From assembly GCF_027474845.2 (NCBI RefSeq), contig NZ_CP107031.2:1006501-1070500 (forward strand): a stretch of 64,000 nucleotides of DNA, read 5' to 3'. Below the pieces are notes generated by a model. The model saw nothing but the letters and a program-made list of their open reading frames with translations, was not told the origin of the DNA and did no database searches. Both the position numbers and the translations under genes were made by a program. The first letter of the stretch is position 1; each line of letters begins with the position of its first letter. This DNA is from Maribacter aestuarii (GTDB taxonomy: Bacteria > Bacteroidota > Bacteroidia > Flavobacteriales > Flavobacteriaceae). Positions 285 through 63,665 of the stretch are shown here, one piece after another.

Positions 285-296
285 TGATTTAAGTCA
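285..296. promoter_or_regulatory. TGAY-N4-RTCA box, divergent (hsp20 / P-type ATPase)
   Basis: TGATTTAAGTCA. A -7-like element lies exactly 23 nt away on both sides: TATTTTTG at 320-327 for the ATPase and TACTTTCG (minus, 261-254) for hsp20. One operator apparently activates both genes. Confidence 0.75.
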
Positions 297-374
297 GTCC
301 CGTACAATTTCTTTCGTTTTATTTTTGGATAACTTTACAGGAAGCATCTTTCCATATAATCCGACCAGAACTAG

Positions 375-2879
375 ATGATAAACCCGACCAATTTTGGAAT
401 TCATGGCCTAACCGATGCGGAGGTATTACATTCCCGTAAGACCCACGGCAGAAATACCTTGGATTACAAAAAGAAGAATAATTTTTTGGATGCTTTAAAA
501 AGCATCGTCCAGGAACCAATGGTTATTCTATTGGCGGTTGCATCCGCTATCTACTTTATAAGCGGAAATATTGGGGATGGTATTTTTTTGGCCGCGGCAA
601 TCGTTTTGGTCGGCTCTATTTCATTGTATCAAGATTCCAAAAGCCGAATGGCTTTGGAGAAATTAAAAACCATTACACAACCCAATAGCAAGGTCATTCG
701 TAATGGCCAGATTTTAGACGTTAAAAGCGATGAAATTGTAGTTGGTGATAGTTTAATTGTTGAAGAAGGCAATATTATTCCTGCAGACGGTACGATCATA
801 CATTCTAATGATTTCTCGGTCAATGAATCATTGTTAACGGGAGAATCCCTTTCTGTTTTTAAGGATATTACAAATTTGGACAACAAGGTATTTACCGGTA
901 CCACGGTAGCTAGCGGCTTAGCAATTGCTACGGTTACCCAAATAGGCAACCATACGGAGTTAGGGAAAATTGGAAAAAGCCTAGAATCCATTCAAGAAGA
1001 AAAAACACCCTTGGAAAGGCAGATTGCCAACTTCGTGAAGAACATGTCCATCTGGGGTGGGATTGCTTTTTTGTTGGTCTGGAGCATCAATTTTTTTAAA
1101 TCATATGACGTACTGGATAGCCTTTTGAAAGCACTAACGCTTGCTATGAGCATATTACCCGAAGAAATTCCTGTGGCATTTACCACATTCATGGCTTTAG
1201 GAGCATGGCGTTTGATGAAAATGGGAATAATTGTAAAGCAAATGAAAACGGTAGAATCCCTTGGTAGTGCTACGGTTATCTGTGTTGACAAAACTGGAAC
1301 CATTACAGAAAACAGGATGGCGCTGGTTAAACTTTTCAGCCTAAAATCTGGAAAGATTCTCTCTATGGATGAAGTACTGACCGAGAATGAAAAAGAACTC
1401 ATAACTAATGCCATGTGGGCCAGCGAACCCATTCCATTTGACCCCATGGAGATTGCACTGCACGAGGCCTATATAAAATTATCGCCATTGGATGAGCGTC
1501 CCGATTACGAAATAATACACGAGTATCCTCTTGGTGGTAAACCACCAATGATGACACATCTTTTTGAAAACGATAACGGCCATCGTATCATAAGCGCAAA
1601 GGGGGCACCTGAGGCATTTCTGGAAATTTCCAACTTGTCTAATACTGAAAAAACAAAGATTAAGGAGACGATAGAACTATTGGGAAAAGACGGCTATAGA
1701 CTTTTAGGCGTTGGTAAAACCAATTTTAATGGAAGCCAATTTCACCTAAGACAACAGGATTTTCAATTCGACTTTTTAGGTATTGTGGCTTTTTACGATC
1801 CTCCAAAAGAAAATATCCCAGAAGTATTACAAGCCTTTGATAAAGCGGGAATCAATGTAAAATTGGTTACTGGGGACAATTCGGCAACGGCAACCGCCAT
1901 TGCAAGACAAGTTGATTTTATTGGTTATGAAAAATGTATCTCGGGAAAAGAACTGATGCAATTAAACAATTTTGAATTACAGGAAAAAGTAAAGTCCACC
2001 CAAGTCTTTACCCGTATGTTCCCCGATGCCAAATTACGAATCATCAACGCCCTAAAAGCCAATAATGAGGTAGTGGCCATGATCGGCGATGGCGTTAATG
2101 ATGGCCCTGCGCTAAAAGCCTCCCATTTTGGGATAGCTATGGGAAAAAAGGGAACGGAAATCGCCAAGGAAGCGGCTTCCCTGATTTTGGTGGATGACGA
2201 CTTATCTAAAATGATTGATGCCATTGCCATGGGTAGAAAAATCTACACCAATCTTAAAAAGGCGGTTCAATATATTATTTCAATCCATATTCCCATTATT
2301 CTAACAGTCTTCATTCCTTTGGCACTGGGTTGGTTGTACCCCACTATATTTTCTCCCTCGCACGTGATCTTACTGGAATTGATTATGGGGCCTACATGCT
2401 CAATAATCTATGAAAATGAGCCTATGGAAAGAAATACCATGGTTCAAAAACCTAGACCCTTTACCACTACCTTTTTCAATTTCAGGGAATTGGTCACAAG
2501 TATCGTTCAAGGGCTCGTGATTACCCTAGGAGCATTATCCGTCTACCATTACGCAGTAGCACAAGGCTTTGATGAAGCAATTACACGCACCATGGTTTTC
2601 ATGGTATTGATTTTTGCCAATATTTTTCTAACCTTGGTAAATAGGTCCTTTTACTTTTCTTTATGGACCACATTAAAATATAGGAACAGGCTAATACCTT
2701 TAATAATCGGTATTACTTTGACACTCTCGGCCTTGCTACTAATGGCGCCTCCATTTACCGCATTTTTTGAGTTTAAGACGCTGACTGCAGGACAACTTGC
2801 GATTTCTTTTTTAGCAGGATTAATTTCTGTAGTATGGTTTGAATTCGTGAAATGGGGAAAGCGTATTAGGTCTAATTAA
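375..2879 (+). CDS. P-type cation-transporting ATPase
   Basis: The 834-aa protein has the full P-type ATPase plan: N-terminal cytosolic domain, paired membrane helices near residues 50-90, actuator motif (NESLLTGES), helix 4 with PEEIP, the phosphorylation motif DKTGT (Asp about 305), a nucleotide-binding domain, the hinge GDGVND, and C-terminal helices. PEEIP in place of the PEGLP of Ca2+ pumps leaves the ion uncertain; Ca2+/Mn2+-like or H+ transport are both possible. Transcription probably starts just after the TATTTTTG element at 320-327, under the divergent box at 285-296, giving a leader of about 40 nt. P-type ATPases are also frequent members of hypoxia regulons in other bacteria. Confidence 0.9.
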   Translation: MINPTNFGIHGLTDAEVLHSRKTHGRNTLDYKKKNNFLDALKSIVQEPMVILLAVASAIYFISGNIGDGIFLAAAIVLVGSISLYQDSKSRMALEKLKTITQPNSKVIRNGQILDVKSDEIVVGDSLIVEEGNIIPADGTIIHSNDFSVNESLLTGESLSVFKDITNLDNKVFTGTTVASGLAIATVTQIGNHTELGKIGKSLESIQEEKTPLERQIANFVKNMSIWGGIAFLLVWSINFFKSYDVLDSLLKALTLAMSILPEEIPVAFTTFMALGAWRLMKMGIIVKQMKTVESLGSATVICVDKTGTITENRMALVKLFSLKSGKILSMDEVLTENEKELITNAMWASEPIPFDPMEIALHEAYIKLSPLDERPDYEIIHEYPLGGKPPMMTHLFENDNGHRIISAKGAPEAFLEISNLSNTEKTKIKETIELLGKDGYRLLGVGKTNFNGSQFHLRQQDFQFDFLGIVAFYDPPKENIPEVLQAFDKAGINVKLVTGDNSATATAIARQVDFIGYEKCISGKELMQLNNFELQEKVKSTQVFTRMFPDAKLRIINALKANNEVVAMIGDGVNDGPALKASHFGIAMGKKGTEIAKEAASLILVDDDLSKMIDAIAMGRKIYTNLKKAVQYIISIHIPIILTVFIPLALGWLYPTIFSPSHVILLELIMGPTCSIIYENEPMERNTMVQKPRPFTTTFFNFRELVTSIVQGLVITLGALSVYHYAVAQGFDEAITRTMVFMVLIFANIFLTLVNRSFYFSLWTTLKYRNRLIPLIIGITLTLSALLLMAPPFTAFFEFKTLTAGQLAISFLAGLISVVWFEFVKWGKRIRSN

Positions 2880-3000
2880 ACGGGCTTCTTTGATACCTAT
2901 AATTAATAAGGCCTCAGTAATACAATTGTTTTTTTGTTAAAATTGCAGGATAGTGTGGTCGAATCATTCAGCCCAAGACCTTATCACACTCTTGAACCAA

Positions 3001-3468
3001 TCAATAATAGGGATAGTAATCCGTTGCCGGTGATACTATTTCATATTCCGACTGAAGAAATGAAACCAAATCAATGAGTTCTTGAACGGTCATGATCTCA
3101 TTGTAATTTACCATCTTCGAAAGACCCTCATGGGTAGTGCCTTGCCTTTTATAACCTTGCGCAATTTTGTGCGAAGGATTGATAATCGAAGTGACCAATT
3201 CCCTGTAAGTTTTTTTTCTAGTTACGACTCCCCCAAGATGTACTTTGAGACTATCCGTTCCGCCCTTCCACTCTATCCCGGCGATACTATGACAGGTATT
3301 ACAATCCAACGTTTTATAGATTTTTTTGCCTTCTTCAATGTCGCCCGCTGGTAATGCAAATCCACGTGCTTCCTCGTTACAACTACTTAAAAATACGCCT
3401 CCAAAGAATAAGATGAACATCAAGATAAAATTTGATGGATTGCATCGATTTATACTTGTACTACACAT
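3001..3468 (-). CDS. Cytochrome c lipoprotein, monohaem
   Basis: 155 aa. An N-terminal hydrophobic segment ends in the lipobox-like LSSC, giving a predicted lipoprotein outside the inner membrane. A single haem c motif CNTCH sits near residue 57, after the EEGKKIYKTLDC segment typical of class I cytochromes, and a Met-containing C-terminal half could supply the sixth ligand. It probably carries electrons in the periplasm for a nearby oxidoreductase such as the sulfide oxidation system, but the partner is an inference. It is transcribed alone and preceded by a TGAC-N4-GTCA box. Confidence 0.85.
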   Translation of the reverse strand: MCSTSINRCNPSNFILMFILFFGGVFLSSCNEEARGFALPAGDIEEGKKIYKTLDCNTCHSIAGIEWKGGTDSLKVHLGGVVTRKKTYRELVTSIINPSHKIAQGYKRQGTTHEGLSKMVNYNEIMTVQELIDLVSFLQSEYEIVSPATDYYPYY

Positions 3469-3552
3469 AATTTTTTATTTTAAATTAAGGATTTGATGTA
3501 TTACCCTAATAATTGATAAAAACAATATAATGACTAAGGGAAAGAAAGAAAA

Positions 3553-3564
3553 TGACTTACGTCA
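3553..3564 (-). promoter_or_regulatory. TGAY-N4-RTCA box before cytochrome c
   Basis: TGACTTACGTCA. On the minus strand TATATTGT (3529-3522) follows after 23 nt; it matches TAnnTTTG imperfectly, but the spacing is the one seen at the other copies. Confidence 0.65.
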
Positions 3565-3622
3565 GCATGGTTAGAAAACTATAATATGGAGCGCACTTCT
3601 CCAAAAGAGCAGCAGTTTAGTT

Positions 3623-3638
3623 TAACTTTCGAAAGTTA
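3623..3638. repeat. Perfect 16-bp palindrome
   Basis: TAACTTTCGAAAGTTA is self-complementary over all 16 bases. It lies in the 267-nt gap between the cytochrome c gene and the end of the small YeeE/YedE gene. It differs from both recurrent operators of the window and could be a binding site or a short hairpin; no function can be assigned. Confidence 0.4.
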
Positions 3639-3735
3639 TAAATAGCATTACAAAATGTAACTTTTTAAAATCCATTTTGCAGTAAAATTAAAGGCCATAA
3701 AAATTAAGCTACAAGATGGTCATTTTACGCAAAAC

Positions 3736-4149
3736 CTAATGTGGTAGCCTATTTTTCAAGAGGCCGTATAGGAAGGTTCCAAGAATTGAAAATAATATGA
3801 CCACTAAAATGGGCACATATCCCGCTCCGACCAAGGTAAACATTGGTCCAGGGCAAGCACCGGCCAAAGCCCAGCCCAAACCAAATATAATTCCGCCGTA
3901 CATATAGCGGCTAAAGCTTTTAGTTTTGGGGTGGAACATTATTCTTTCGCCATAGAAAGATTTAAGCGGTAACCGCTTTATAAGTTGTACCATAATCACC
4001 CCCATAAATAAGGCCGAACCAATGATACCGTACATATGAAAAGAATCGAACTTGAACATCTCATATATCCTGAACCATGAAGCAGCTTCAGATTTGAACA
4101 TGGTTATTCCGAAAATAACGCCAATAACTAAATAAGAAAGAAATCTCAT
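3736..4149 (-). CDS. YeeE/YedE-like transporter subunit, short form (DUF6691)
   Basis: 137 aa, nearly all hydrophobic. It contains the YeeE/YedE signature around residues 85-105 (FGLGWALAGACPGPMF), in which the Cys is the sulfur-relay residue type described for thiosulfate carriers of this family. It starts 4 nt after the companion gene at 4154-4711, so the two are one transcription unit and probably form a two-piece transporter, each contributing half of the usual YeeE fold. The cargo is likely thiosulfate or a persulfide-type sulfur compound, in line with the surrounding sulfur genes. Confidence 0.88.
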   Translation of the reverse strand: MRFLSYLVIGVIFGITMFKSEAASWFRIYEMFKFDSFHMYGIIGSALFMGVIMVQLIKRLPLKSFYGERIMFHPKTKSFSRYMYGGIIFGLGWALAGACPGPMFTLVGAGYVPILVVILFSILGTFLYGLLKNRLPH

Positions 4150-4153
4150 GTGA

Positions 4154-4711: not shown

Positions 4712-4758
4712 AGCATAATTTTAAGACGCAAAGAAACATAAGCTATGTAAGGGGGTCA

Positions 4759-6518: not shown

Positions 6519-6566
6519 ATCGTCATTTAAGTAATACAAAAATATAGCTCACAGGTTAAGTACAAA

Positions 6567-9394: not shown

Positions 9395-9408
9395 GTATCC
9401 TAGGTTAC
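9395..9408 (-). promoter_or_regulatory. GTAAC-N4-GTTAC-type operator (one mismatch) before MBL-rhodanese/SQR
   Basis: GTATCCTAGGTTAC: the left arm has one change from GTAAC. TACCTTTA (minus, 9372-9365) follows at the standard distance. The palindrome touches the -7 element of the second promoter driven from 9439-9450. Confidence 0.65.
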
Positions 9409-9438
9409 AAAGGTGAAGAAGAGCATTCTCTTCAGAAA

Positions 9439-9450
9439 TGACCTACGTCA
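9439..9450 (-). promoter_or_regulatory. TGAY-N4-RTCA box upstream of MBL-rhodanese/SQR
   Basis: TGACCTACGTCA; CACCTTTG (minus, 9415-9408) follows after exactly 23 nt. This second promoter would place RNA polymerase over the GTATC-N4-GTTAC operator, so binding at the two could be competitive or sequential. Confidence 0.6.
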
Positions 9451-10532: not shown

Positions 10533-10544
10533 TGATTTTTGTCA
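10533..10544 (-). promoter_or_regulatory. TGAY-N4-RTCA box before DUF3365 cytochrome
   Basis: TGATTTTTGTCA. The spacing to the start (50 nt) fits the group, but the sequence 23 nt downstream (GAGCTTGC) is not a recognisable -7 element, so this copy is the least certain promoter. Confidence 0.5.
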
Positions 10545-10555
10545 GTTTACTTCGT

Positions 10556-11422: not shown

Positions 11423-12055
11423 TTATAGTGAAATGATCTCTATATGATTTCTATGAAGTTTTACTTTCCCCATGATTTCCAATTTTTTCAGCAATCGGGA
11501 AACCACTACCCTGGAAGTGTTTAGGTCGTAGGCAATTTCTTGATGGGTGCTATTGATTGTTTTATCTTTTAGGACTCTTACCTTGTCCTTTAAGTATTTA
11601 AGCAGTCGCTCATCCATTTTTAAAAAGGCGATACTATCCACGGTATCCAATAATTCATTTAATCTAGTGTGATAGGTATTCAGCACAAAATTTCTCCAAC
11701 TTTTGTAAGACGCCAACCAATCCTCCATTTTTCCAATAGGTATCATGAGGACTTCGGTGACGCTCTCCGCAACTACCCTGACCTCACTTTTTTTCCGACC
11801 TAGGCAACAAGTCATTGTCATAGCACATGTATCCCCATCCTGTAAAAAATAGAGTAACAACTCATTGCCATCGTTATCCTCTCGTAAGACCTTGATGACT
11901 CCTGAAACCAATAAGGGCATATATTTTATGTATTGCCCTATTTCCATTAACTTTTCACCTTCCTGAAAATTCCGTAGTGTACCAACTTCGTTTATTTCCT
12001 TTAGTAATTCTTCTTCAAAAACATGTCCATAATTCACCGTAAGTCCTTTAACCAT
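11423..12055 (-). CDS. CRP/FNR-family regulator of sulfur genes
   Basis: 210 aa: cyclic-nucleotide-binding-like beta-roll (about 15-130), dimer helix, then a winged helix whose recognition helix reads NTSRVVVSRLLKKLE. It lacks the Glu that CRP and FNR use to read the TGA core, so it should bind a different half-site. A Cys cluster (CAMTMTCCLG, about residues 79-88) in the roll could sense sulfane sulfur; this is an inference. It begins 3 nt after the S2P protease gene and is co-transcribed with it. The four GTAAC-type operators at 4759, 6567, 9395 and 11402 are its probable targets. Confidence 0.85.
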   Translation of the reverse strand: MVKGLTVNYGHVFEEELLKEINEVGTLRNFQEGEKLMEIGQYIKYMPLLVSGVIKVLREDNDGNELLLYFLQDGDTCAMTMTCCLGRKKSEVRVVAESVTEVLMIPIGKMEDWLASYKSWRNFVLNTYHTRLNELLDTVDSIAFLKMDERLLKYLKDKVRVLKDKTINSTHQEIAYDLNTSRVVVSRLLKKLEIMGKVKLHRNHIEIISL

Positions 12056-13144: not shown

Positions 13145-13193
13145 AATGCTGCCATTTAAGGGCGAAGATATTTGGCTAGCACCCTATCAACAA

Positions 13194-13205
13194 TGACATT
13201 GGTCA
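13194..13205. promoter_or_regulatory. TGAY-N4-RTCA box, divergent (S2P-CRP / pfkB operon)
   Basis: TGACATTGGTCA. A perfect TAAATTTG (13229-13236) lies 23 nt to the right and TATCTTCG (minus, 13170-13163) 23 nt to the left, so both operons appear to be served by one central operator. Confidence 0.78.
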
Positions 13206-13257
13206 TATGTGCCCTCTAGCGTTACCGTTAAATTTGGATTAGAATTAAGCCATAAAA

Positions 13258-17310: not shown

Positions 17311-17362
17311 CGTTAAACACTAAGCTGAGCTTAAAATTTCTCCTTTTAATACGCTGATGTCA

Positions 17363-17374
17363 TGATAAATATCA
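17363..17374 (+). promoter_or_regulatory. TGAY-N4-RTCA box before DUF302 gene
   Basis: TGATAAATATCA, a perfect palindrome at the core. TATCTTGT (17398-17405) follows after 23 nt. Confidence 0.7.
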
Positions 17375-17437
17375 GTGCAATCCTAAAACGCCGTTCGTAT
17401 CTTGTTTGCATCACAAATATTAAAAACAATAACGGCT

Positions 17438-18458: not shown

Positions 18459-18470
18459 TGACTTAAATCA
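18459..18470 (+). promoter_or_regulatory. TGAY-N4-RTCA box before zinc-ribbon gene
   Basis: TGACTTAAATCA, the exact reverse complement of the copy at 285-296. TACCTTCT (18494-18501) follows after 23 nt. Confidence 0.68.
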
Positions 18471-18543
18471 TTTTTTCTTTTATTAACATCGGTTACCTTC
18501 TTAGTTCAAACGAGATTGACTAAAAATAATGGAACAATAGCTT

Positions 18544-19648: not shown

Positions 19649-19706
19649 ACTATTTCAAATTTAGGTTAGAAGTATCAAAATTATGAGTGTTGGTTTTCGG
19701 TGGCAA

Positions 19707-19718
19707 TGATTTTAATCA
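19707..19718 (-). promoter_or_regulatory. TGAY-N4-RTCA box before secreted protein
   Basis: TGATTTTAATCA. A perfect TAATTTTG (minus, 19683-19676) follows after 23 nt. The plus-strand gene at 19916 is about 200 nt away and is less likely to be a target. Confidence 0.72.
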
Positions 19719-19915
19719 GTCATAAATGGAAAATTTTATGCTCATTATTATTATTACTTGATTTAAATTATTTTCGCAATGGCTTTTTTAATGTGGTCAA
19801 GTATGATATTAATCATCTCGAAAAACCACCATATACCTTAGTTTTGGTCAAAGATTTAATTCGTCAAACACGACTTATAAAGAACAATATGACCTCTTGA
19901 ATCTTAATAGGACCT

Positions 19916-26816: not shown

Positions 26817-26828
26817 TGATTTAGGTCA
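26817..26828. promoter_or_regulatory. TGAY-N4-RTCA box between DinB gene and zinc-ribbon remnant
   Basis: TGATTTAGGTCA. To the right TATATTTA (26852-26859) follows at exactly 23 nt and points at the decayed zinc-ribbon copy. To the left a weak TACTTGCA (minus) lies at 24 nt for the DinB gene. Confidence 0.65.
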
Positions 26829-26931
26829 TATAGAATAATCGCAAAGAATTCTATATTTAGCCTTCATATTTTTCGGATTTCCACTAAAATCTTAAGCGAA
26901 ATCTAGTGGCAGGAAATAATATTAAAAACAA

Positions 26932-28597: not shown

Positions 28598-28936
28598 GAT
28601 TTAGTTGCGCAAGGTTAACATCAAATTATTTTAAGCCAAATAGTCTTCATCCCTAATTCAGAAGGTATTTAATGCATCTACGCTAGTAAATGACTGTAGT
28701 CAGTCAACACAAATAATTCTAGGAGGATTACTAATTGACATCCAAATAATTTCTAAGCACCAAAAATTAACTGGACTGATTTTCATCATATTAGAATTGA
28801 CTTTCCGGTAGTATTTTCAACCTATCATTTGCATATCTGTAGAAAGTTTATCCCATTCTTTCTTGTTCTCCCAGTGGATATCTGCAAGTATCGTACGCTT
28901 GGCCTACGACGGTGGATTTGTAATAAATAAACGACC
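28598..28936. other. Upstream gap between divergent genes, one regulatory box
   Basis: About 340 nt with no gene. It holds the box at 28691-28702, used by the minus-strand gene. The right-hand part up to 28936 shows short open frames without family resemblance. Confidence 0.5.
28691..28702 (-). promoter_or_regulatory. TGAY-N4-RTCA box before membrane protein
   Basis: TGACTGTAGTCA; TACCTTCT (minus, 28667-28660) follows at 23 nt, the same element as at the zinc-ribbon gene. The start is 93 nt away, a longer leader than elsewhere. Confidence 0.65.
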
Positions 28937-42065: not shown

Positions 42066-42118
42066 CTTGTTATGTTTTTTGTTTGTTCGAAGGTAGTATC
42101 GCAGTTCTTTTCTTAAAA

Positions 42119-42130
42119 TGATATTTGTCA
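42119..42130 (-). promoter_or_regulatory. TGAY-N4-RTCA box before WG-repeat operon
   Basis: TGATATTTGTCA; TACCTTCG (minus, 42095-42088) follows at 23 nt. This is the first box after a 13-kb stretch without any. Confidence 0.7.
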
Positions 42131-42802: not shown

Positions 42803-42814
42803 TGATATAAATCA
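42803..42814. promoter_or_regulatory. TGAY-N4-RTCA box, divergent (DUF2267 / hpf)
   Basis: TGATATAAATCA. A perfect TACTTTTG (42838-42845) lies 23 nt to the right. To the left TAAATTTC (minus, 42780-42773) lies at 22 nt. The start codons are 55 nt from the box on both sides. Confidence 0.78.
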
Positions 42815-42869
42815 TTTTATGAAAAGAATAGCATAGATACTTTTGGATGGAAACATTAAAGAACATATC

Positions 42870-44054: not shown

Positions 44055-44456
44055 CTACTTCAACAACAATTCAATCTTAGCTAAAATTACCAGTTCAGAT
44101 TTGTTCTTTCCTGCAAAGGAATTGGCAATGGCACCAGCTGTCTTTTTGGTCAAGGATTTTATTTCTTCTGAAAACGCGTGTGGATGTTCGTTATAAAAAT
44201 CCTTGAATTCCTCATAACAGTCTTCGCTGCTCCGGCCGTATTCCATAAGTCCATCGAAAACGATTTCAATCTGGTTTGCGGCATCCGTACCGTAACGATC
44301 TGTAAAATCATCCACATATAGCCAATCTTCCTTGACGATTTCCTTCACTTTGGTCCATTCTTTATCATGTACACTACCATCACTTATGGCCACGGCATAA
44401 AACAGTTTACCTAAGCTTTCGTAGAGCATGTTCATAGTTCTAGCTGTATTTTTCAT
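44055..44456 (-). CDS. TerB-like helical protein
   Basis: 133 aa. The segment AVAISDGSVHDKEWTKVKEIVKEDW is the TerB-type helix with acidic residues that bind metal, followed by further helices. TerB-like proteins are cytosolic scaffolds of metal/phage stress systems. There is no other ter gene in sight. It has its own promoter (TATTTTTA, 23 nt from the box at 44514). Confidence 0.75.
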   Translation of the reverse strand: MKNTARTMNMLYESLGKLFYAVAISDGSVHDKEWTKVKEIVKEDWLYVDDFTDRYGTDAANQIEIVFDGLMEYGRSSEDCYEEFKDFYNEHPHAFSEEIKSLTKKTAGAIANSFAGKNKSELVILAKIELLLK

Positions 44457-44513
44457 CCTCTCTGATTTAATTACTACTGCTTTAAAAATAGAATACCCAT
44501 AGCTGCCTTTATA

Positions 44514-44525
44514 TGATAAAAATCA
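44514..44525. promoter_or_regulatory. TGAY-N4-RTCA box between TerB-like gene and histidine kinase
   Basis: TGATAAAAATCA. On the minus strand TATTTTTA (44490-44483) follows at 23 nt, serving the TerB-like gene. Toward the kinase a perfect TATATTTG (44538-44545) lies only 12 nt away and 4 nt before the kinase ATG, so the box might repress the kinase instead (autoregulation) or be irrelevant to it. Confidence 0.68.
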
Positions 44526-44549: not shown

Positions 44550-46064
44550 ATGCGGGTTTTTCAGAAAAACAGTAACATATTTAATCTTCTTTCTGAGGGT
44601 GTTTCCGAAGGTATTATAGTAGTGAACACAGAACAGGTAATCGTGGCCACCAATACTTCAGCAGAAGAAATGTTCGGGTATAAAAAAGATGAGCTCATGG
44701 GAAAACCCTTGGATACGCTCATCCCGAAAAGATATCACAAAAAGCACGACACCCATGTGGAACATTTTATTGCAAAAAGTGGGAAAAGACAAATGGGGCA
44801 TGGTCGCGATTTGTATGGCGTTCGCAAAAACGGTCACGAATTTCCGGTTGAAGCAGGTCTGAATCCTTTTGAACTTTACGGGGCAACTTATGTAATGGCT
44901 TTAATAATAGACATTACGGAGCGTAAAATAAAGGAAAAAGAACTCAGTCACTGGGCTCGAATTTTTGACGACTCATTGAATGAAATCTATGTGTTTGATG
45001 CAAAAACTTTCAAATTCACCCATGTAAACAAAGAAGCGCAAAGAAACATAGGGTTTACTATTGACGAATTGGTGATGATGACCCCAGTAGATATCAAACC
45101 GGAATTTAACGAACCTAAATTTCAGGAATTACTAATGCCCATATTAGAAGAAAAGACCGGCAAAGTAAAATTTGAGACAACACACGGTAGAAAAGATGGA
45201 TCTTCTTATCCCGTAGAAGTACATTTACAACTATCGGCCATGGGAGAAAAGGAGGTTTTTGTTGCTATAATATTAGATATAACAGAACGAAAAAATTACA
45301 CCGAAAAACTTGAAAAAACGGTACTCGAGCGTACCAAACAATTGACAGATGCATTAGCAAAGGAAAAAGAATTGAACGAATTGAAGACTCGTTTCCTTTC
45401 CTTAGTATCGCACGAGTTCAAAACACCTTTAAGTAGTATTCTAACATCTATAACCTTACTTGGAAAATATACGCAGACGGAACAACAAGAAAAGCGGGAC
45501 AAACATGTAACTACAATTAAAAATAAAGTCAAATATCTAGATGCAATTCTTAACGATTTTCTTTCGGTAGAACGTTTGGAGTCCGGTAAGGTACAGTATA
45601 AGATAGAACATTTTCCACTTAGTAAAGTCATTAACGAAGTAGTTTACGATGCCAATATGCTGCTTAAAGAAGGACAGAAAATCCAGTATCCTGAGAATAT
45701 AGATGATATAATTTTAGAGTTTGATGAAAAAACCTTGGAATTGGCGCTGTCCAACCTGGTACACAACGCTATTAAATATTCCCCTGAAGATTCGATAATC
45801 GATTTACAGGTAGAAACAGGAGATGACGGATTACTTTTGAAAATAATAGATACGGGAATGGGCATCCCCAAACAGGAACAGAAACATATTTTCAATCGCT
45901 ATTTCAGGGCCAAGAATGCCTTATTGACCCAAGGGACGGGTATTGGCCTTAATATTGCGAAGCAACACCTAGAGAACTTAGGCGCCAGTCTTAACTTCTC
46001 TAGCATAGAGAACAAAGGGTCCACATTTACCGTACTAATTCCAAAAAAAATTAATATCACCTAG
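44550..46064 (+). CDS. Soluble FixL-like PAS-PAS histidine kinase
   Basis: 504 aa without membrane segments. PAS 1 (about 10-130) has the FixL-type signature: LIPKRYHKKHDTHVEHF with His66 aligned to the haem-ligating His of FixL, and GHGRD aligned to its distal Arg region. PAS 2 spans about 135-245, then a coiled coil, HisKA with SHEFKTP (phospho-acceptor His288), and an ATPase domain with N-box (LVHNAIKY), DTGMGIP and GTGIGLNIA. It is a cytosolic sensor, plausibly of oxygen or redox. The receiver-CRP fusion gene follows after 91 nt and is the likely partner. Haem binding is inferred. Confidence 0.85.
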   Translation: MRVFQKNSNIFNLLSEGVSEGIIVVNTEQVIVATNTSAEEMFGYKKDELMGKPLDTLIPKRYHKKHDTHVEHFIAKSGKRQMGHGRDLYGVRKNGHEFPVEAGLNPFELYGATYVMALIIDITERKIKEKELSHWARIFDDSLNEIYVFDAKTFKFTHVNKEAQRNIGFTIDELVMMTPVDIKPEFNEPKFQELLMPILEEKTGKVKFETTHGRKDGSSYPVEVHLQLSAMGEKEVFVAIILDITERKNYTEKLEKTVLERTKQLTDALAKEKELNELKTRFLSLVSHEFKTPLSSILTSITLLGKYTQTEQQEKRDKHVTTIKNKVKYLDAILNDFLSVERLESGKVQYKIEHFPLSKVINEVVYDANMLLKEGQKIQYPENIDDIILEFDEKTLELALSNLVHNAIKYSPEDSIIDLQVETGDDGLLLKIIDTGMGIPKQEQKHIFNRYFRAKNALLTQGTGIGLNIAKQHLENLGASLNFSSIENKGSTFTVLIPKKINIT

Positions 46065-46155: not shown

Positions 46156-47208
46156 ATGAAAACAATTTTATTAATCGAAGACGATAAAGCTTTACGCGAG
46201 AATACCGAGGAGCTTCTGGAACTTTCAGGTTATTCTGTTCTAACCGCGCCTAATGGTAAAATTGGTATAGAATTGGTCAAACAAAATTTACCGGATATTA
46301 TCGTTTGTGACATTATGATGCCGGTTATAGATGGATACGGAGTTTTAGAAAACCTATCCGCCGACGAAAAAACAAAACAAATTCCATTTATCTTCCTATC
46401 CGCGAAAACGGAGCATAAAGAAATACGAAAAGGCATGGACTTGGGTGCGGACGATTACCTAACCAAACCTTTTGAAGAAGAAGACCTTATTAGTGCCATA
46501 GAAAGCCGTTTGGCAAAGGCGGAACTTATGAACCGTATGCTCGATAAAACGTCAAGCGACCATGGTGTTTCACAGGATGAGATGCGCACTTTACACGAAT
46601 TAAAGAATTTTTTTGACGATAACGGCGAAGTTGTTCATTTTGACCAAGGGGAACTAATTTACCAAGAAGGTTCGCGCTCCAATCAAATTTATCTCATTCT
46701 AAAGGGACTTGTAAAGTGCCATAGTATGGATGCGGATGGTAAGGAACTGATTACCTCATTATTCCGAGCGGATGATTTTTTAGGTTTTACTTCTTTTTTA
46801 AATAATATTCCCTACCAAGAATCTGCAACGGCGATGGAACCAGTGGACTTAGCCGGTATTTCCAAAGAGCGTCTAACGGAAATCTTAAAAAAAAATAAGA
46901 ATATCTCCTTGGAACTCATGGAACTATTAACAGAGAATATAAGTGTTATCAAAGCACAGCTACTCCAAATGGCTTATAGCTCTGTCCGTAAGAAAACGGC
47001 ACAAACACTATTGCAGTTTGCCGAGATAATGAATACCAATCCAGAAGAACCCATCAAGATATCACGCAATGACTTAGCAAGTGTTGCCGGTATTGCTACG
47101 GAAAGTCTCATACGCACCCTTTCTGGTTTTAAAAAGGAAGGGCTCATAGCCATCGAAGGCCGAAATATTCGGATTAAGGAATTAAAAGCATTACAGTATG
47201 TAAATTAA
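46156..47208 (+). CDS. Receiver-CRP/FNR fusion response regulator
   Basis: 350 aa: receiver domain (1-120, phospho-Asp52 in VCDIMMP, Lys near 104 in YLTKPF), linker, a cyclic-nucleotide-binding-like beta-roll (about 150-255) and a CRP-type winged helix (about 280-340). The recognition helix ATESLIRTLSGFKK aligns with TVETISRLLGRFQK of FNR, keeping the Glu and Arg that read TGA. Single-protein fusion of FixJ-like and FixK-like functions. It is the best candidate for binding TGAY-N4-RTCA. No box was seen in its own upstream region. Confidence 0.88.
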   Translation: MKTILLIEDDKALRENTEELLELSGYSVLTAPNGKIGIELVKQNLPDIIVCDIMMPVIDGYGVLENLSADEKTKQIPFIFLSAKTEHKEIRKGMDLGADDYLTKPFEEEDLISAIESRLAKAELMNRMLDKTSSDHGVSQDEMRTLHELKNFFDDNGEVVHFDQGELIYQEGSRSNQIYLILKGLVKCHSMDADGKELITSLFRADDFLGFTSFLNNIPYQESATAMEPVDLAGISKERLTEILKKNKNISLELMELLTENISVIKAQLLQMAYSSVRKKTAQTLLQFAEIMNTNPEEPIKISRNDLASVAGIATESLIRTLSGFKKEGLIAIEGRNIRIKELKALQYVN

Positions 47209-47244: not shown

Positions 47245-47256
47245 TGATATTTATCA
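47245..47256 (+). promoter_or_regulatory. TGAY-N4-RTCA box before USP 2
   Basis: TGATATTTATCA; perfect TACATTTG (47280-47287) at 23 nt. It lies 36 nt after the stop of the receiver-CRP regulator gene. Confidence 0.78.
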
Positions 47257-47304
47257 TGTATTGAAGTTATTCACAACCCTACATTTGCGTACCAAGCCAT
47301 GTGA

Positions 47305-48157: not shown

Positions 48158-48169
48158 TGACCAAAATCA
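48158..48169 (+). promoter_or_regulatory. TGAY-N4-RTCA box before USP 3
   Basis: TGACCAAAATCA; TACTTTTA (48193-48200) at 23 nt. Confidence 0.75.
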
Positions 48170-48223
48170 TAGTTTATATGTCCTCTCGCGGCTACTTTTA
48201 CAGAAATAGTAAAAGCAAGACCG

Positions 48224-49111: not shown

Positions 49112-49123
49112 TGATATATATCA
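49112..49123 (+). promoter_or_regulatory. TGAY-N4-RTCA box before USP 4-7 operon
   Basis: TGATATATATCA; TATTTTTA (49147-49154) at 23 nt. It drives an operon of four USP genes. Confidence 0.76.
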
Positions 49124-49174
49124 TAGCTAATAACATCTAATGGCGATATTTTTAATACGTCACAAACGCATACT

Positions 49175-52924: not shown

Positions 52925-52979
52925 AGTGTATATCTTTTGGGTTAACATGCAAAATAATAACAGGTACTAACATCTAAAA

Positions 52980-52991
52980 TGATATTAATCA
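52980..52991. promoter_or_regulatory. TGAY-N4-RTCA box, divergent (HMA-like / ROK kinase)
   Basis: TGATATTAATCA. TTTATTTG (53015-53022) lies 23 nt to the right and TATTTTGC (minus, 52956-52949) 23 nt to the left. Confidence 0.74.
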
Positions 52992-53041
52992 GTTGAAAGA
53001 AACTTTATGTTTTTTTTATTTGTACATGAATGTAAAAAGTT

Positions 53042-54013
53042 ATGGTACAAGAGGTAGTATTAGGCATAGATATCGGCGGAAGCCTTACAAAAATAGGGCT
53101 GGTAACACAGGCAGGAACCATAGTTACAAAGACAGTCTTTAAAACCGAGGCCCAGAAACCATTTCCGGACTTTATGAAAAAATTGAAATTAGAGGTAGAC
53201 AACCTTATTTCAAATTCAGGTCCGGATATCAAAATACTATCCGTTGGTGTTGGTGCGCCAAATGCTAATCCGTACACAGGTCAAATTGAAAACCCACCTA
53301 ACCTCAAATGGGGTCCGGCCACCCCGATATCTAAATCTATAGAACAAGCGTTTGAATTTCACGTCTCTTTGGCAAACGATGCAAATGCTGCGGCTTTGGG
53401 TGAAATGCTTTATGGTGCTGCAAAAGGCATGAAAAATTTTGTTACGCTTACATTGGGAACAGGACTCGGCAGTGGTTTAATCGTGGATGGCAAATTGGTA
53501 ATAGGCCAACATGGTGTGGCAGGAGAACTTGGGCACGTAAATGTAGACCCTTATGGGCGTAAATGCAACTGTGGTCTACACGGTTGTCTAGAGACCTATG
53601 CATCCGTAACCGGGATTAAAAGAACTGTTTTTGAGTTGATATCGAACATGCGGGAAGATTCACCCTTGCGCAGCCTTAGCTTTGAGGAATTGACCGGAAC
53701 AGCAATTTCAGATGCCGCCCTAAGCGGCGATGTTATCGCTTTAAGAGCTTTTGAAAGAACCGGGGAAATATTGGGAAGTAAAATGGCGGATACCGTTGCC
53801 CATTTAGACCCTGAAGCATTTATACTATCAGGAGGTTTGAGCAAAGCAGGTGAAATACTTCTAAATCCTGTAAAGACCAGTATGGAAAATCATCTTTTCA
53901 ACGCTTATAAAGGCAAAATAAGTGTACTGTTATCGAAAGCCACCAGTGCTGATGCAGTTTTGGGTCCGGCAGCTTTGGCTTGGACAGCGTTGGAGAGGAC
54001 AACGGTTATATGA
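53042..54013 (+). CDS. ROK-family sugar kinase (glucokinase-like)
   Basis: 323 aa. ATP-binding GIDIGGSLTKIGLV at residues 7-20; the catalytic Asp in ANDANAAALGE; the ROK zinc motif CNCGLHGCLE near residues 177-186. Most ROK kinases phosphorylate glucose or N-acetylated hexosamines. Its location among USPs under the shared regulator suggests increased glycolytic flux in the induced state. The stop codon overlaps the next box (54011-54022). Confidence 0.9.
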   Translation: MVQEVVLGIDIGGSLTKIGLVTQAGTIVTKTVFKTEAQKPFPDFMKKLKLEVDNLISNSGPDIKILSVGVGAPNANPYTGQIENPPNLKWGPATPISKSIEQAFEFHVSLANDANAAALGEMLYGAAKGMKNFVTLTLGTGLGSGLIVDGKLVIGQHGVAGELGHVNVDPYGRKCNCGLHGCLETYASVTGIKRTVFELISNMREDSPLRSLSFEELTGTAISDAALSGDVIALRAFERTGEILGSKMADTVAHLDPEAFILSGGLSKAGEILLNPVKTSMENHLFNAYKGKISVLLSKATSADAVLGPAALAWTALERTTVI

Positions 54014-54022
54014 CGATTGTCA
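54011..54022 (+). promoter_or_regulatory. TGAY-N4-RTCA box before USP 8
   Basis: TGACGATTGTCA, overlapping the stop of the ROK kinase gene (TGA 54011-54013). TACATTTA (54046-54053) at 23 nt. Confidence 0.74.
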
Positions 54023-54072
54023 TTTGTAAGTTTCAAAAACACCGATACATTTAAGTTCAAACGCTACCAAAG

Positions 54073-55761: not shown

Positions 55762-55811
55762 GCATTTATATTTTAAACTATAAAAATACCAAAATTGACA
55801 ACTGCGCCAAC

Positions 55812-55823
55812 TGACCAATATCA
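55812..55823. promoter_or_regulatory. TGAY-N4-RTCA box, divergent (thioredoxin / USP 9)
   Basis: TGACCAATATCA. TAGTTTTA (55847-55854) at 23 nt on the right and TATTTTTA (minus, 55788-55781) at 23 nt on the left. Confidence 0.77.
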
Positions 55824-55878
55824 TGGTTTTTAGATTTCTTCTCCCCTAGTTTTATACCGTAATCATAAACTACGGGCT

Positions 55879-58608: not shown

Positions 58609-58620
58609 TGATAATCGTCA
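58609..58620 (+). promoter_or_regulatory. TGAY-N4-RTCA box before USP 12 operon
   Basis: TGATAATCGTCA; TACATTTA (58644-58651) at 23 nt. It precedes a five-gene unit reaching to 63125. Confidence 0.75.
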
Positions 58621-58674
58621 TAGGCAGACTTAAAATGTGCCTTTACATTTACCCTATATAAAATGTAAAAAATT

Positions 58675-60004: not shown

Positions 60005-60913
60005 ATGAATGAGCTTTTAGATTTTTTTGAAAACCCTGTCATTGTCAAAGCAACAAAACTAATACTTTGGGTGCTGTTCATTGTATTGGCCATAGGATTT
60101 CTCAGGAAGCTACTAAAACGAAAAATCAATGACGCTGCTATCCGATACAAGGCCCAAAAAGGGGTTGAAGTATTTGGATATGTACTAATTGGACTATTGA
60201 TCCTTATATCGTTTACGGTACAAAACTTTGAGGACTACACTATAATAATAGGCCTGTTCACGGCTGGTATTACATTTACGCTACAAGAATTAATCTTAAG
60301 TATAGCAGGTTCTTTTTACATCTTTTTCGTTCGTGTCTACAAACCTGGAGATCGAATAGAACTAAATGGAATTAAAGGGGACGTCATTGACATAGATAGT
60401 ATTTACACAACGATGATGGAAATGGGCGAATGGGTAAGCAGCGATAATTACTCTGGTAGAATCGTAAAAATCAGCAATGCCTTTGTTTTTAAAGGCCCTA
60501 TAAAAAACTATTCCATGGATTTCCCTTTTGTTTGGGATGAGTTGAATATTCTATTTACATACGATTCCGATTTAGAAGCAGGAAAGCAAATCGTATTGAA
60601 CAGTGCGTTGGAACTACTTTCTGATTACACCAAAAATTCCCAGACTAAATGGGAGGATATGGTAGAACGGTACTATATAGAAAACGCAACATTAGAGCCA
60701 ACCTTGGCCGTGAGTCTTACCGATAATTGGATAGCAGTTAACCTAAGGTATATTACAGACTATAAATTGAGAAGAGCTACTAAACACAAATTGTTTCAGC
60801 ACATTGTAAATGCTGTATCTGAAACAAACGGTAAAGTCACCTTGGCATCCACCACCTTACAATTACTGAAAATACCGGAGTTAGAAGTGAATCTAAAAAA
60901 ACAAAATGTATAA
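60005..60913 (+). CDS. MscS-family mechanosensitive channel
   Basis: 302 aa. Three N-terminal hydrophobic segments (about 15-37, 57-75, 80-105), the last with a glycine/alanine-rich pore helix (ITFTLQELILSIAGSFYIFFV), then the beta domain (VYKPGDRIELNGIKGDVIDIDSIYTTMM) and a cytosolic vestibule. It releases osmolytes when tension rises. It overlaps the next gene by 8 nt. Confidence 0.9.
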   Translation: MNELLDFFENPVIVKATKLILWVLFIVLAIGFLRKLLKRKINDAAIRYKAQKGVEVFGYVLIGLLILISFTVQNFEDYTIIIGLFTAGITFTLQELILSIAGSFYIFFVRVYKPGDRIELNGIKGDVIDIDSIYTTMMEMGEWVSSDNYSGRIVKISNAFVFKGPIKNYSMDFPFVWDELNILFTYDSDLEAGKQIVLNSALELLSDYTKNSQTKWEDMVERYYIENATLEPTLAVSLTDNWIAVNLRYITDYKLRRATKHKLFQHIVNAVSETNGKVTLASTTLQLLKIPELEVNLKKQNV

Positions 60914-61751
60914 GGATACCGAAATCGATATTATTAAATCATCTGGAGAAAAGGCTAAATTTTCTATGGATAAGCTTCGTAATTCATTAAAACATAGTGG
61001 AGCTGACCACAATTTGATAGAAGAAATTGTTGACAAGGTATGTGATGAACTTTACGAAGGTATCTCTACCAATGAGATTTATAATAGGGCTTATGCCCTA
61101 CTTAAAAAGAAGAAGTCGGTATTTGCTTCCAAATACAAATTGAAAAAAGCGATTTACGAACTTGGTCCCACAGGTTTTCCTTTTGAACGCTTTGTAGGAG
61201 CACTGCTGGAATATTCCGGCTATTCCACTCAAGTGGACGTTATTATGAACGGAATTTGTGTAACCCATGAAATAGATGTGGTTGCAGAAAAAAATGGACA
61301 AACCACTATCATTGAATGTAAATTTCATGGTGAAGAAGGCCGTAACTGCAACGTAAAAGTGCCACTTTACATACATTCCCGATACAAAGATGTAAAAGCT
61401 CATTGGACTGCTAAAAAAAACGAAACAAGAGCACTGGACAGGGGTTGGGTCGTGACCAACACGCGCTTTACAGAACACGCCATAGAATATGGGAAATGTG
61501 CCCGACTGTATCTCCTTAGTTGGGACTATCCCAAAAACGATGGATTAAAAGATAGAATAGACAGGTTGGGCCTATATCCAATTACGGTTTCTACCCTGTT
61601 GACTAATAGAGAAAAACAATTTTTATTGAGCAGGGATGTAGTGTTATGCCGTCAACTGTGGAAGGACAAATTCTTTTTAGATCATTTAGGAATATCCAAA
61701 CCCAGAAAAGAAAAGATTCTTGAAGAAATAAAACAACTCTGTAGTTCTTAG
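60906..61751 (+). CDS. ATP-cone protein with Mrr-like restriction endonuclease domain
   Basis: 281 aa. Residues 5-90 match an ATP-cone (IIKSSGEKAKFSMDKLRNSLKHSGA, EGISTNEIYNRAYALLKKKK), the nucleotide-sensing module of ribonucleotide reductase. Residues about 95-190 are a PD-(D/E)xK nuclease: FERFVGALLEYSGY, then HEIDVVAEKNGQTTIIECKFH, in which Asp, Glu and Lys form the active site. ATP/dATP could gate nuclease action. Such fusions are known but their biological role is unclear. It is in an operon with MscS and a beta-CASP protein. Confidence 0.8.
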   Translation: MYKDTEIDIIKSSGEKAKFSMDKLRNSLKHSGADHNLIEEIVDKVCDELYEGISTNEIYNRAYALLKKKKSVFASKYKLKKAIYELGPTGFPFERFVGALLEYSGYSTQVDVIMNGICVTHEIDVVAEKNGQTTIIECKFHGEEGRNCNVKVPLYIHSRYKDVKAHWTAKKNETRALDRGWVVTNTRFTEHAIEYGKCARLYLLSWDYPKNDGLKDRIDRLGLYPITVSTLLTNREKQFLLSRDVVLCRQLWKDKFFLDHLGISKPRKEKILEEIKQLCSS

Positions 61752-63125: not shown

Positions 63126-63137
63126 AGTGTACTTTTC

Positions 63138-63149
63138 TGACTTAGGTCA
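63138..63149 (+). promoter_or_regulatory. TGAY-N4-RTCA box before coiled-coil gene
   Basis: TGACTTAGGTCA; TAGATTTA (63173-63180) at 23 nt. It starts 12 nt after the beta-CASP stop codon. Confidence 0.75.
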
Positions 63150-63200
63150 TTGTATGCTTTTATAGGGGAAAGTAGATTTAAGAAATTACCCCATTAAACT

Positions 63201-63620
63201 ATGGAAAAGGAACACATAAGTACAGGTCAAGAGAAAAAAGTAGAGGAACTTCACTGGGAAATTCAACGTTGGAAATCGAACTTTCAATTTATGGACGATG
63301 AGCTACTTTTTATAGGCCGTCTTATGGACAGTTATATTTTTGAACCGAACACGCCCAATCTTTTTGAGCGACTTCAGAATTACAAAACACGTATCAAGAA
63401 AATCGATACCTCAAAGAAAAAGGTGCGAGACGAAATTTCAAAACACGAAAACACTTTAGGCGGCATGTTAGAATGTACCGATAGTGCTTGCGATTTAACC
63501 TATTATCGCAAGCATGACAAATTACAGTCCCAAGTGGACGCTTGTTTTGAAGATTTCCGAAAATTGAAATCAGAAATTTTTAATTATGCGGGCGGTATTT
63601 TAAAAAGACGTAAACCATAG
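63201..63620 (+). CDS. Predicted coiled-coil protein, unknown function
   Basis: 139 aa, soluble and highly charged. It has KVEELHWEIQRWKSNFQFMDDELLFIGRLMDSYIF, then NLFERLQNYKTRIKKI and a basic coil. It shares a pattern with the partial gene at 63735 (W-x-S-x3-F-x2-DE-x2-F-x3-L then N-L-F-E/K), so the two look like tandem paralogues. Function not recognised. Confidence 0.72.
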   Translation: MEKEHISTGQEKKVEELHWEIQRWKSNFQFMDDELLFIGRLMDSYIFEPNTPNLFERLQNYKTRIKKIDTSKKKVRDEISKHENTLGGMLECTDSACDLTYYRKHDKLQSQVDACFEDFRKLKSEIFNYAGGILKRRKP

Positions 63621-63653
63621 ACATCCGTAGGGCAGTCCTTCCCTTTTAAAAAC

Positions 63654-63665
63654 TGATTATTGTCA
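63654..63665 (+). promoter_or_regulatory. TGAY-N4-RTCA box before right-edge gene
   Basis: TGATTATTGTCA; TACCTTTA (63689-63696) at 23 nt. The start codon at 63735 lies 69 nt from the box. Confidence 0.72.

What the first reader, a model, noticed from the sequence alone, without database searches (positions are those of the whole stretch)
285..63665. A window-wide FNR/FixK-like regulon defined by 22 TGAY-N4-RTCA palindromes at class II activator spacing
Seen: 22 intergenic palindromes TGAY-N4-RTCA at 285, 3553, 9439, 10533, 13194, 17363, 18459, 19707, 26817, 28691, 42119, 42803, 44514, 47245, 48158, 49112, 52980, 54011, 55812, 58609, 63138 and 63654. In 25 promoter directions a TAnnTTTG-like -7 element begins exactly 23 nt after the palindrome; DUF2267 (22 nt) and DinB (24 nt, weak) are near misses, and 10533 lacks an element. 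Six boxes lie between divergent genes; three of these (285, 13194, 52980) plus 55812 have exact elements both ways. If the first T of the element is at about -12 the palindrome centre is near -41.5, where class II CRP/FNR activators sit. At equal base frequencies roughly four occurrences would be expected in 64 kb by chance anywhere, not 22 in gaps with one spacing. The set links hsp20, P-type ATPase, cytochromes, PfkB, HPF, USPs, ROK kinase, thioredoxin and others.
Basis: partly seen in the sequence, partly recalled or inferred. Interest (0 to 1): 0.95.

Follow-up and report, generated by a model that had tools for sequence, protein, structure and literature searches.

The report
One DNA switch, interchangeable oxygen sensors
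This flavobacterial genome holds 48 exact copies of one DNA motif set 23 bases before predicted promoter elements, 45 of them in two islands rich in stress and respiration genes, and the motif is likely a shared switch worked by interchangeable regulators predicted to sense oxygen and perhaps light.

Summary
All 22 boxes exist; the window has 30 against 3.9 expected. The 23-nt step to TAnnTTTR is real: 398 composites from 527 boxes in 80 related loci, none from reversed boxes. The genome has 48 exact composites, 45 in two islands covering 6.9% of it.

'FNR/FixK-like' is partly right. Two regulator types go with the box: an FNR-like protein with four invariant cysteines, beside cbb3 oxidase genes, and an in-window receiver-CRP fusion (REC-CRP) beside a kinase with a FixL/DosP-like PAS domain. 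Over 149 family genomes the median composite count is 27 with both, 15 with REC-CRP only, 9 with FNR-like only, 1 with neither. The cbb3 promoter keeps the composite in FNR-only (7 of 7) and REC-CRP-only (5 of 6) genomes. The other in-window CRP protein is excluded. A second REC-CRP adjoins a LOV (blue-light) kinase in 7 of 11 loci. Binding, phosphorylation and sensing are predicted, not tested.

The parts
46156..47208 (+). REC-CRP: receiver + cNMP-type + Crp HTH fusion, predicted reader of the boxes
   Evidence: Pfam; 109 relatives aligned, HTH Glu316 and Arg320 in 109/109 (the script's filter asked for CDIMMP and E-x3-R, 109 of 110 loci passed it)
44550..46064 (+). Histidine kinase with FixL/DosP-like first PAS domain, predicted O2 sensor
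   Evidence: Pfam; PDB best rows DosP/FixL; H66 64/64, R86 59/64
44483..44525 (-). Box 44514 with exact element towards the 133-aa gene; towards the kinase an element starts 12 nt after the box
   Evidence: box before 70 of 70 relatives of the 133-aa gene, strict composite 60 of 70
44055..44456 (-). 133-aa conserved gene divergent from the kinase, predicted activated target
   Evidence: no Pfam or NCBIfam hit
285..327 (+). Composite, exact, to P-type ATPase (375-2879)
254..296 (-). Composite, one mismatch, leftward
3522..3564 (-). Box 3553 with a two-mismatch element, to cytochrome c gene
9408..9450 (-). Composite, one mismatch, to MBL-rhodanese gene
10533..10544 (.). Box without element (3 or more mismatches both ways)
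13194..13236 (+). Composite, exact, to PfkB-type kinase
13163..13205 (-). Composite, one mismatch, to M50-CBS gene, after which P0001 follows
17332..17374 (-). Box 17363 leftward, one mismatch; no gene starts nearby on this strand
17363..17405 (+). Box 17363 rightward, two-mismatch element, to DUF302 gene
18459..18501 (+). Box with two-mismatch element
19676..19718 (-). Composite, exact, to 149-aa ORF
19804..19846 (+).
26817..26859 (+). Composite, exact; next plus-strand ORF starts about 295 nt away
28660..28702 (-). Box with two-mismatch element
28777..28819 (+).
42088..42130 (-). Composite, one mismatch, to WG-repeat gene
42803..42845 (+). Composite, exact, to HPF/YfiA gene; a one-mismatch element at 22 nt towards DUF2267
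   Evidence: HPF 20 of 24 strict in relatives
47245..47287 (+). Composite, exact, to USP gene
   Evidence: 42 of 46 strict
48158..48200 (+). Composite, exact, to USP gene
49112..49154 (+). Composite, exact, to USP gene
   Evidence: 26 of 27 strict
52980..53022 (+). Composite, one mismatch, to ROK kinase
   Evidence: relatives 0 of 5 strict, 4 of 5 relaxed
52949..52991 (-). Box 52980 leftward, two mismatches at 23 nt, one at 22 nt
54011..54053 (+). Composite, exact, to USP gene
   Evidence: 39 of 47 strict
55812..55854 (+). Composite, exact, to USP gene
   Evidence: 20 of 25 strict
55781..55823 (-). Composite, exact, to thioredoxin gene
   Evidence: but only 1 of 46 relatives strict
58609..58651 (+). 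Composite, exact, to USP-like gene (58675-59514; not itself scanned)
   Evidence: 21 of 31 strict
63138..63180 (+). Composite, exact, to 139-aa gene
63654..63696 (+). Composite, exact, to a gene cut by the window end
11423..12055 (-). P0001, second CRP-family protein in the window; excluded as main reader

Best explanation
The TGAY-N4-RTCA boxes 23 nt before TAnnTTTR elements are likely one shared class II operator that two different regulators, an FNR-like protein and a receiver-CRP fusion (REC-CRP), would each bind, centred at -41.5, to switch on low-oxygen respiration and stress genes. Shown by sequence: the box, its fixed step, its conservation at related promoters, its grouping in islands, and the fall of its genome count when both regulators are missing. 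Inferred: the PAS kinase (44550-46064) would sense falling O2 with heme and phosphorylate REC-CRP (46156-47208), which then binds directly; this would fold the FixL-FixJ-FixK relay of rhizobia into one step. The FNR-like protein is predicted to hold an Fe-S cluster with C5, C8, C54 and C107. REC-CRP would also repress its own operon, because the box before the kinase gene lies about -30.
For: Step: 398 composites at 23 nt, 0 at 22, 16 at 24, reversed control 0. Genome: 48 exact composites, 45 in two islands. Counts over 149 genomes: medians 27 (both, 36 genomes), 15 (REC-CRP only, 30), 9 (FNR-like only, 55), 1 (neither, 28); total 2163 composites against 79 for the reversed pattern; Mann-Whitney p 3e-8 and 5e-8 for neither against FNR-like-only and REC-CRP-only in genomes at least 90% complete, not corrected for descent. 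Nearly equal box logos in FNR-only (92 sites, 8 genomes) and REC-CRP-only genomes (114 sites, 7 genomes). cbb3 promoter composite in 13 of 14 genomes with CcoNO: FNR-only 7 of 7, REC-CRP-only 5 of 6, own 1. In REC-CRP-only G078 all 7 composites lie within 30 kb of REC-CRP (0.14 expected); G113 9 of 18, G118 5 of 10, G056 9 of 34. Kinase PAS: 13 of 15 PDB rows are FixL, DosP, heme PAS or YddU (that YddU is Dos is recalled); H66 64/64, R86 59/64. Four cysteines 30/30 in the 30 best of 91 FNR-like proteins.
Against: No binding data. G048 (29 composites, 82% complete), G147 (16, 73%) and G138 (10, control 3, 99%) have composites but neither regulator by my thresholds. G010 has an HTH with the same Glu/Arg spacing (TAKESLVR) but 1 composite. 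REC-CRP-only G040 has no box at cbb3. Two REC-CRP-only genomes with the cbb3 composite, G075 and G113, also have a distant FNR-like hit (E 5e-29, 4e-30), below my cut; G056 and G118 have only REC-CRP hits. FNR-only genomes G026, G045, G100, G123 and G136 have just 1-3 composites. Several USP genes lack a composite in relatives (USP5 1 of 16, USP6 1 of 22, USP7 0 of 14, USP10 0 of 16; perhaps inside operons) and thioredoxin has it in 1 of 46. In this genome the FNR-like gene ends early. In FNR-only genomes clustering near the FNR gene is weak (1-4 sites per genome).
Confidence: 0.7

Rival explanations
1. A single classical FNR/FixK-type regulator reads all boxes; REC-CRP is a bystander or just another target.
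For: The FNR-like gene lies beside cbb3 genes and has an exact composite before it; 55 FNR-only genomes have a median of 9 composites.
Against: 30 genomes without it (by E-value cut) but with REC-CRP have a median of 15; G078 has all 7 composites around REC-CRP; G056 and G118 keep the cbb3 composite with only REC-CRP hits.
Confidence: 0.13
2. P0001 (11423-12055), the other CRP-family protein in the window, is the reader.
For: It lies in the island and belongs to the CRP family.
Against: Present (E below 1e-64) in G039, G064, G073, G087, G092, G099 and G137, all with 0 composites; not found in G088 (29 composites), G066 (12), G140 (9). Its helix TSRVVVSR lacks the Glu of the other readers.
Confidence: 0.02
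3. A regulator not recognised here, perhaps another CRP subfamily or a different fold, reads the box, and REC-CRP and FNR-like proteins merely live in the same genomes (for example with cbb3 oxidase).
For: G048, G138 and G147 have composites without either regulator; of eleven genomes with neither regulator nine have no CcoNO match and two only distant ones, so the regulators travel with cbb3.
Against: This genome has only four Crp-type HTH proteins by Pfam, three with the same Glu/Arg helix; boxes crowd around REC-CRP. G048 and G147 are incomplete.
Confidence: 0.1
4. The boxes at -41.5 act mainly as repressor sites.
For: The kinase promoter has the box near -30.
Against: Exact -41.5 spacing is the class II activator place, and cbb3, which is induced at low O2 in F. 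psychrophilum (PMC9723704, passages), has it.
Confidence: 0.05

Closest known systems
hFixL-FxkR-FixK and FnrN of Rhizobium leguminosarum (PMC7888657; passages read)
   Same: A FixL-type kinase branch and an FNR-type protein meet on one palindrome (TTGAT-N4-ATCAA) and activate the cbb3 oxidase; feedback through boxes near the regulator promoters.
   Different: There FixK is a separate protein made after a two-step relay; here receiver and CRP are one protein next to the kinase gene. The box lacks the outer TT/AA; the element is Bacteroidota TAnnTTTG; either reader may be missing; the targets include a USP/HPF island.
E. coli FNR (NCBIfam PRK11161; residue roles recalled)
   Same: Best NCBIfam hit of the FNR-like protein (92.5 bits); residues 4-204 align to 19-221, so C5 and C8 fall on model positions 20 and 23.
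   Different: Below the family cut-off of 228 bits; C29 has no counterpart by eye, C54 is invariant instead.
FixL and DosP heme-PAS sensors (PDB)
   Same: Best matches of the kinase's first PAS; His66 and Arg86 line up with the FixL His and Arg (alignment; roles recalled).
   Different: Kinase output goes to a REC-CRP fusion; heme binding untested.
DosRS-DosT dormancy regulon of Mycobacterium (recalled, no call)
   Same: Heme-linked kinases and a regulon rich in universal stress proteins.
   Different: DosR is a LuxR-type regulator with another box.

Membership tests
Class II CRP/FNR-dependent promoter | Palindromic CRP/FNR-like box at one fixed distance before the core element, centre near -41.5 | tested here: met
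   Peak at 23 nt: 398, neighbours 0 and 16; -41.5 follows from the element place -12 to -5 in F. psychrophilum
Class II CRP/FNR-dependent promoter | Activation by the bound regulator touching RNA polymerase | not testable with these tools
   Needs transcription assays
FNR (Fe-S oxygen sensor) | Score above NCBIfam Fnr cut-off | tested here: not met
   92.5 bits against 228; the query ends early. Hence FNR-like, not FNR
FNR (Fe-S oxygen sensor) | Four conserved cysteines able to hold a cluster | tested here: met
   C5, C8, C54, C107 in 30/30; spacing differs from E. coli FNR (recalled)
FNR (Fe-S oxygen sensor) | O2-labile cluster | not testable with these tools
   Needs anoxic protein work
FixL-type heme-PAS kinase | PAS close to FixL/DosP with the heme His | tested here: met
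   13 of 15 PDB rows; H66 64/64, R86 59/64
FixL-type heme-PAS kinase | Heme binding and O2-switched kinase | not testable with these tools
   Spectra and phosphorylation assays needed
FixJ/FixK relay | Separate FixJ (receiver + LuxR HTH) that induces fixK | tested here: not met
   The partner gene is a receiver-CRP fusion; works like, is not, FixLJ-K
Phosphorylated response regulator | Acidic pair, phosphoacceptor Asp and Lys | tested here: met
   D9 107, D10 106, D52 107, K104 109 of 109 (CDIMMP was part of the filter, 109 of 110 loci passed)
LOV blue-light kinase (second system) | NCRFLQ motif and LOV relatives | tested here: met
   GKNCRFLQ; PDB rows LOV proteins; 7 of 11 adjoining kinases in relatives

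The most novel reading that the evidence does not exclude
One operator with one fixed geometry is an interchangeable socket for three sensing chemistries: an Fe-S FNR-like protein (O2), a heme-PAS kinase driving a REC-CRP (O2), and a LOV blue-light kinase driving a second REC-CRP with the same recognition helix, so that oxygen and light add up at the same promoters. Flavobacteria lose or swap the readers while promoters such as that of the cbb3 oxidase stay as they are. This genome encodes all three, though its FNR-like gene ends early and its second REC-CRP is split over two frames.
Probability: 0.42. Interest if true: 0.86.

Novelty: new variant of a known kind. Interest (0 to 1): 0.7.

Why it matters
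If right, a regulatory code of a large bacterial family can be read from sequence: box, step and element name the genes, and the regulator set names the signal. It also offers a natural experiment in regulator replacement: the cbb3 promoter keeps its box in FNR-only and in REC-CRP-only genera, so how a regulon survives a change of regulator could be tested by swapping the two proteins. The kinase plus REC-CRP pair would shorten the FixL-to-FixK route to one step, and the LOV pair would tie light to the same genes. In ten paper searches, seen as listings, I saw no account of this system; most subscription papers are not held.

Tried and rejected
P0001 as reader: rejected. FNR-like protein as sole reader: disfavoured. 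Different boxes for the two readers: the logos differ little (T at position 13 in 80 and 94%, G at 15 in 9 and 24%, C at 14 in 20 and 2%). Chance or base composition: 2163 composites against 79 reversed over 149 genomes. Loss of the O2 sensor in distant kinases (one search aligned only the kinase core for G113, G056, G118): the sequences show the same PAS motif, with one PAS instead of two; G078 has two. My pattern for that motif found 50 of 64 kinases although the aligned H66 is 64/64. cAMP binding by REC-CRP: judged unlikely by eye only. My label 'USP13' (60906-61751) is an ATP-cone/Mrr protein. The CRP of G048 on contig 107 was not resolved. No structure prediction, fold search or large protein search was run. 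Rows left out: one search used 8 FNR-only and 7 REC-CRP-only genomes whose sites were fully listed; G107's 8 listed sites and genomes with both regulators were left out. Classes rest on E-value gaps (REC-CRP at most 1e-80, FNR-like at most 1e-39); G001, G025, G119 and G146 count as REC-CRP by a 41-45% paralogue and are all FNR-like positive. Searches saw the best-scoring 30 FNR-like and 109 REC-CRP proteins only.

Full report
OBSERVATION. With TANNTTTG and up to two mismatches the composite occurs 29 times against 3.2 expected. Of the 44 directions of the 22 boxes, 15 have an exact TAnnTTTR at 23 nt, 6 one mismatch, 6 two and 17 three or more; the background rate of an exact element is 0.13%. 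Two good sites were missed (19804, 28777). In 80 named loci around relatives of the in-window regulator (the best 80 of 418 relatives), the 23-nt step takes 398 composites, 22 nt none, 24 nt 16, and reversed boxes none; 78 of 80 loci have at least one. TAnnTTTG is the sigma-A element, placed at -12 to -5, in Flavobacterium psychrophilum (PMC9723704, passages read), so the palindrome would be centred at -41.5. That paper reports strong cbb3 induction at oxygen limitation; 'fnr' and 'crp' do not occur in its main text.

THE WHOLE GENOME. The window is C1:1006501-1070500 of a single 3.86-Mb contig. The genome holds 48 exact composites: 25 at 966-1076 kb, 20 at 2222-2378 kb, 3 elsewhere; the two islands are 6.9% of the genome. 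With up to one mismatch there are 99 matches against 23 for the reversed pattern. One search lists 29 genes outside the window behind exact composites; I scanned 20 of them with Pfam (4 of the 20 without a family) and one more, ccoS, with NCBIfam. They include hemN, PEP carboxykinase, four BON proteins, a USP, two alcohol dehydrogenases and a CheB-CheR-PAS protein. Behind ccoS lie CcoNO, CcoP, CcoG and FixH genes. One box (2280110) lies between the FNR-like gene (exact element) and a P-type ATPase gene beside the cco genes (one mismatch).

CANDIDATE REGULATORS. Pfam's Crp HTH finds four proteins in this genome. P0001 (11423-12055) has the helix TSRVVVSR. REC-CRP (46156-47208) has ATESLIR. The FNR-like protein (C1:2280180, 205 aa, ends early) has TATESCIR. 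A 228-aa CRP beside a receiver ORF and a LOV kinase (C1:1001192-1002987) has TATETAIR. In 109 REC-CRPs the receiver residues and the HTH Glu and Arg are nearly invariant (part of this was asked for by the filter, which 109 of 110 loci passed). The 30 best FNR-like proteins all have C5, C8, C54 and C107.

NATURAL DELETION TEST. The same 149 genomes of the family (148 genera) were searched for the exact composite, REC-CRP, FNR-like and P0001. Median composites: both 27 (36 genomes), REC-CRP only 15 (30), FNR-like only 9 (55), neither 1 (28). Among genomes at least 90% complete, 'neither' has 17 genomes with median 1, range 0-10. Exceptions: G048 (29) and G147 (16), incomplete, and G138 (10, control 3). 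On the other side FNR-only G020, G026, G043, G045, G100, G123 and G136 have 1-3. G010 has one composite though one of its HTHs keeps the Glu/Arg spacing. P0001 is present in many genomes with no composite and missing in some with many. The test is not corrected for shared descent.

ONE BOX, TWO READERS. Box logos from FNR-only and REC-CRP-only genomes are almost alike. CcoNO was found in 14 of 15 genomes searched (not in G078), and 13 of the 14 have the exact composite 257-348 bp before it: 7 of 7 FNR-only, 5 of 6 REC-CRP-only and the window's own. G075 and G113 among the five also have a distant FNR-like hit; G056 and G118 have only REC-CRP hits. Of five further FNR-only genomes with few composites, G026 has no CcoNO match, three keep the composite exactly and G123 with one mismatch. 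Of eleven genomes with neither regulator, nine have no CcoNO match and two only 32-33% ones. In G078 all 7 composites lie within 30 kb of REC-CRP, with 0.14 expected.

LOCAL CIRCUIT. tblastn found a relative of the kinase in 78 of 80 loci; by motif it directly precedes REC-CRP in 63 of 79. Its first PAS domain matches DosP and FixL best in the PDB (13 of 15 rows are FixL, DosP, heme PAS or YddU), with H66 in 64/64 and R86 in 59/64. Related promoters with a strict composite: the 133-aa gene divergent from the kinase 60 of 70 (box 70 of 70), HPF 20 of 24, USP1 31 of 48, USP2 42 of 46, USP4 26 of 27, USP8 39 of 47, USP9 20 of 25, USP12 21 of 31. Without or nearly without: USP5 1 of 16, USP6 1 of 22, USP7 0 of 14, USP10 0 of 16, MscS 0 of 15, thioredoxin 1 of 46, M50-CBS 1 of 20 (all 20 with a box), REC-CRP itself 0 of 80. 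The kinase gene has a box in 54 of 78 loci but no strict composite; in 29 of 50 boxes examined the element starts 11-12 nt after the box, which would centre the box near -30, so repression is likely. I read the shared intergenic box as activating one side and repressing the other; this is inferred.

SECOND REC-CRP AND LIGHT. The second kinase of this genome has a LOV domain (GKNCRFLQ; PDB rows are LOV sensory-box proteins, YtvA-type photoreceptors and phototropins). For the 14 genomes in which one search lists a 41-45% identical REC-CRP I fetched 15 stretches; 11 gave an intact REC-CRP by my pattern, and in 7 of the 11 the adjoining kinase carries NCRFLQ; of the other four, one (G022) has the heme-PAS-like motif and three neither motif. 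The 15 stretches (about 192 kb) hold 39 exact composites. The recognition helix is the same in most (TATETAIR; G054 AAKETAIR). These genomes also have other readers, so the sites may not belong to this one. That light feeds the same operator is the boldest reading, neither excluded nor shown.

WHAT IS KNOWN. In Rhizobium leguminosarum hFixL-FxkR-FixK and FnrN meet on the anaerobox TTGAT-N4-ATCAA and activate fixNOQP (PMC7888657, passages read). The logic is the same; the build differs: here receiver and CRP are one protein, the FNR-like protein has another cysteine layout, and either reader may be missing. Over the class, 165 of 198 genomes have at least one exact composite, often only a few (not summed), so FNR-like use of the box is probably old and ordinary; the fusion, the interchange and the islands are what seems new. 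Relatives of REC-CRP lie in Maribacter, Arenibacter, Aquimarina, Flagellimonas, Cellulophaga, Kriegella and Pricia; the window likely comes from a Maribacter-like organism.

LIMITS. No experiment; no tree; classes by E-value; two regulators of this genome lie in interrupted frames, which may be sequencing errors. Roles of single residues in FNR and FixL, DosR, and YddU as Dos are recalled.

Noticed in passing
own genome C1:1001192-1002987 (L001, L219), outside the window: Operon of a LOV kinase, a receiver ORF and a CRP ORF in different frames; in 11 relatives receiver and CRP are one ORF, in 7 of these beside a LOV kinase. Described only.
   Followed up: partly
own genome C1:2280180-2281900 (L003): The FNR-like ORF ends after a run of A within the HTH region, and the USP gene behind it is split over two frames. 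May be sequencing errors. Described only.
   Followed up: partly
window 3001-12055: Sulfur-type genes (MBL-rhodanese twice, flavoprotein reductase, YeeE-like, TauE) with cytochrome genes and P0001 in the boxed region.
   Followed up: no
window 30.3-42.1 kb: A stretch of about 12 kb with a single box (37001, no element) inside the island; ordinary enzyme genes.
   Followed up: no
window 44526-44550: The kinase's element ends about 6 nt before its ATG, so its transcript would be leaderless or nearly so; similar in many relatives.
   Followed up: partly
window 60906-61751: ATP-cone plus Mrr-type nuclease domain protein within the USP island.
   Followed up: no
G138, G048, G147: Genomes with 10, 29 and 16 composites but neither regulator by my thresholds; two are incomplete.
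   Followed up: partly
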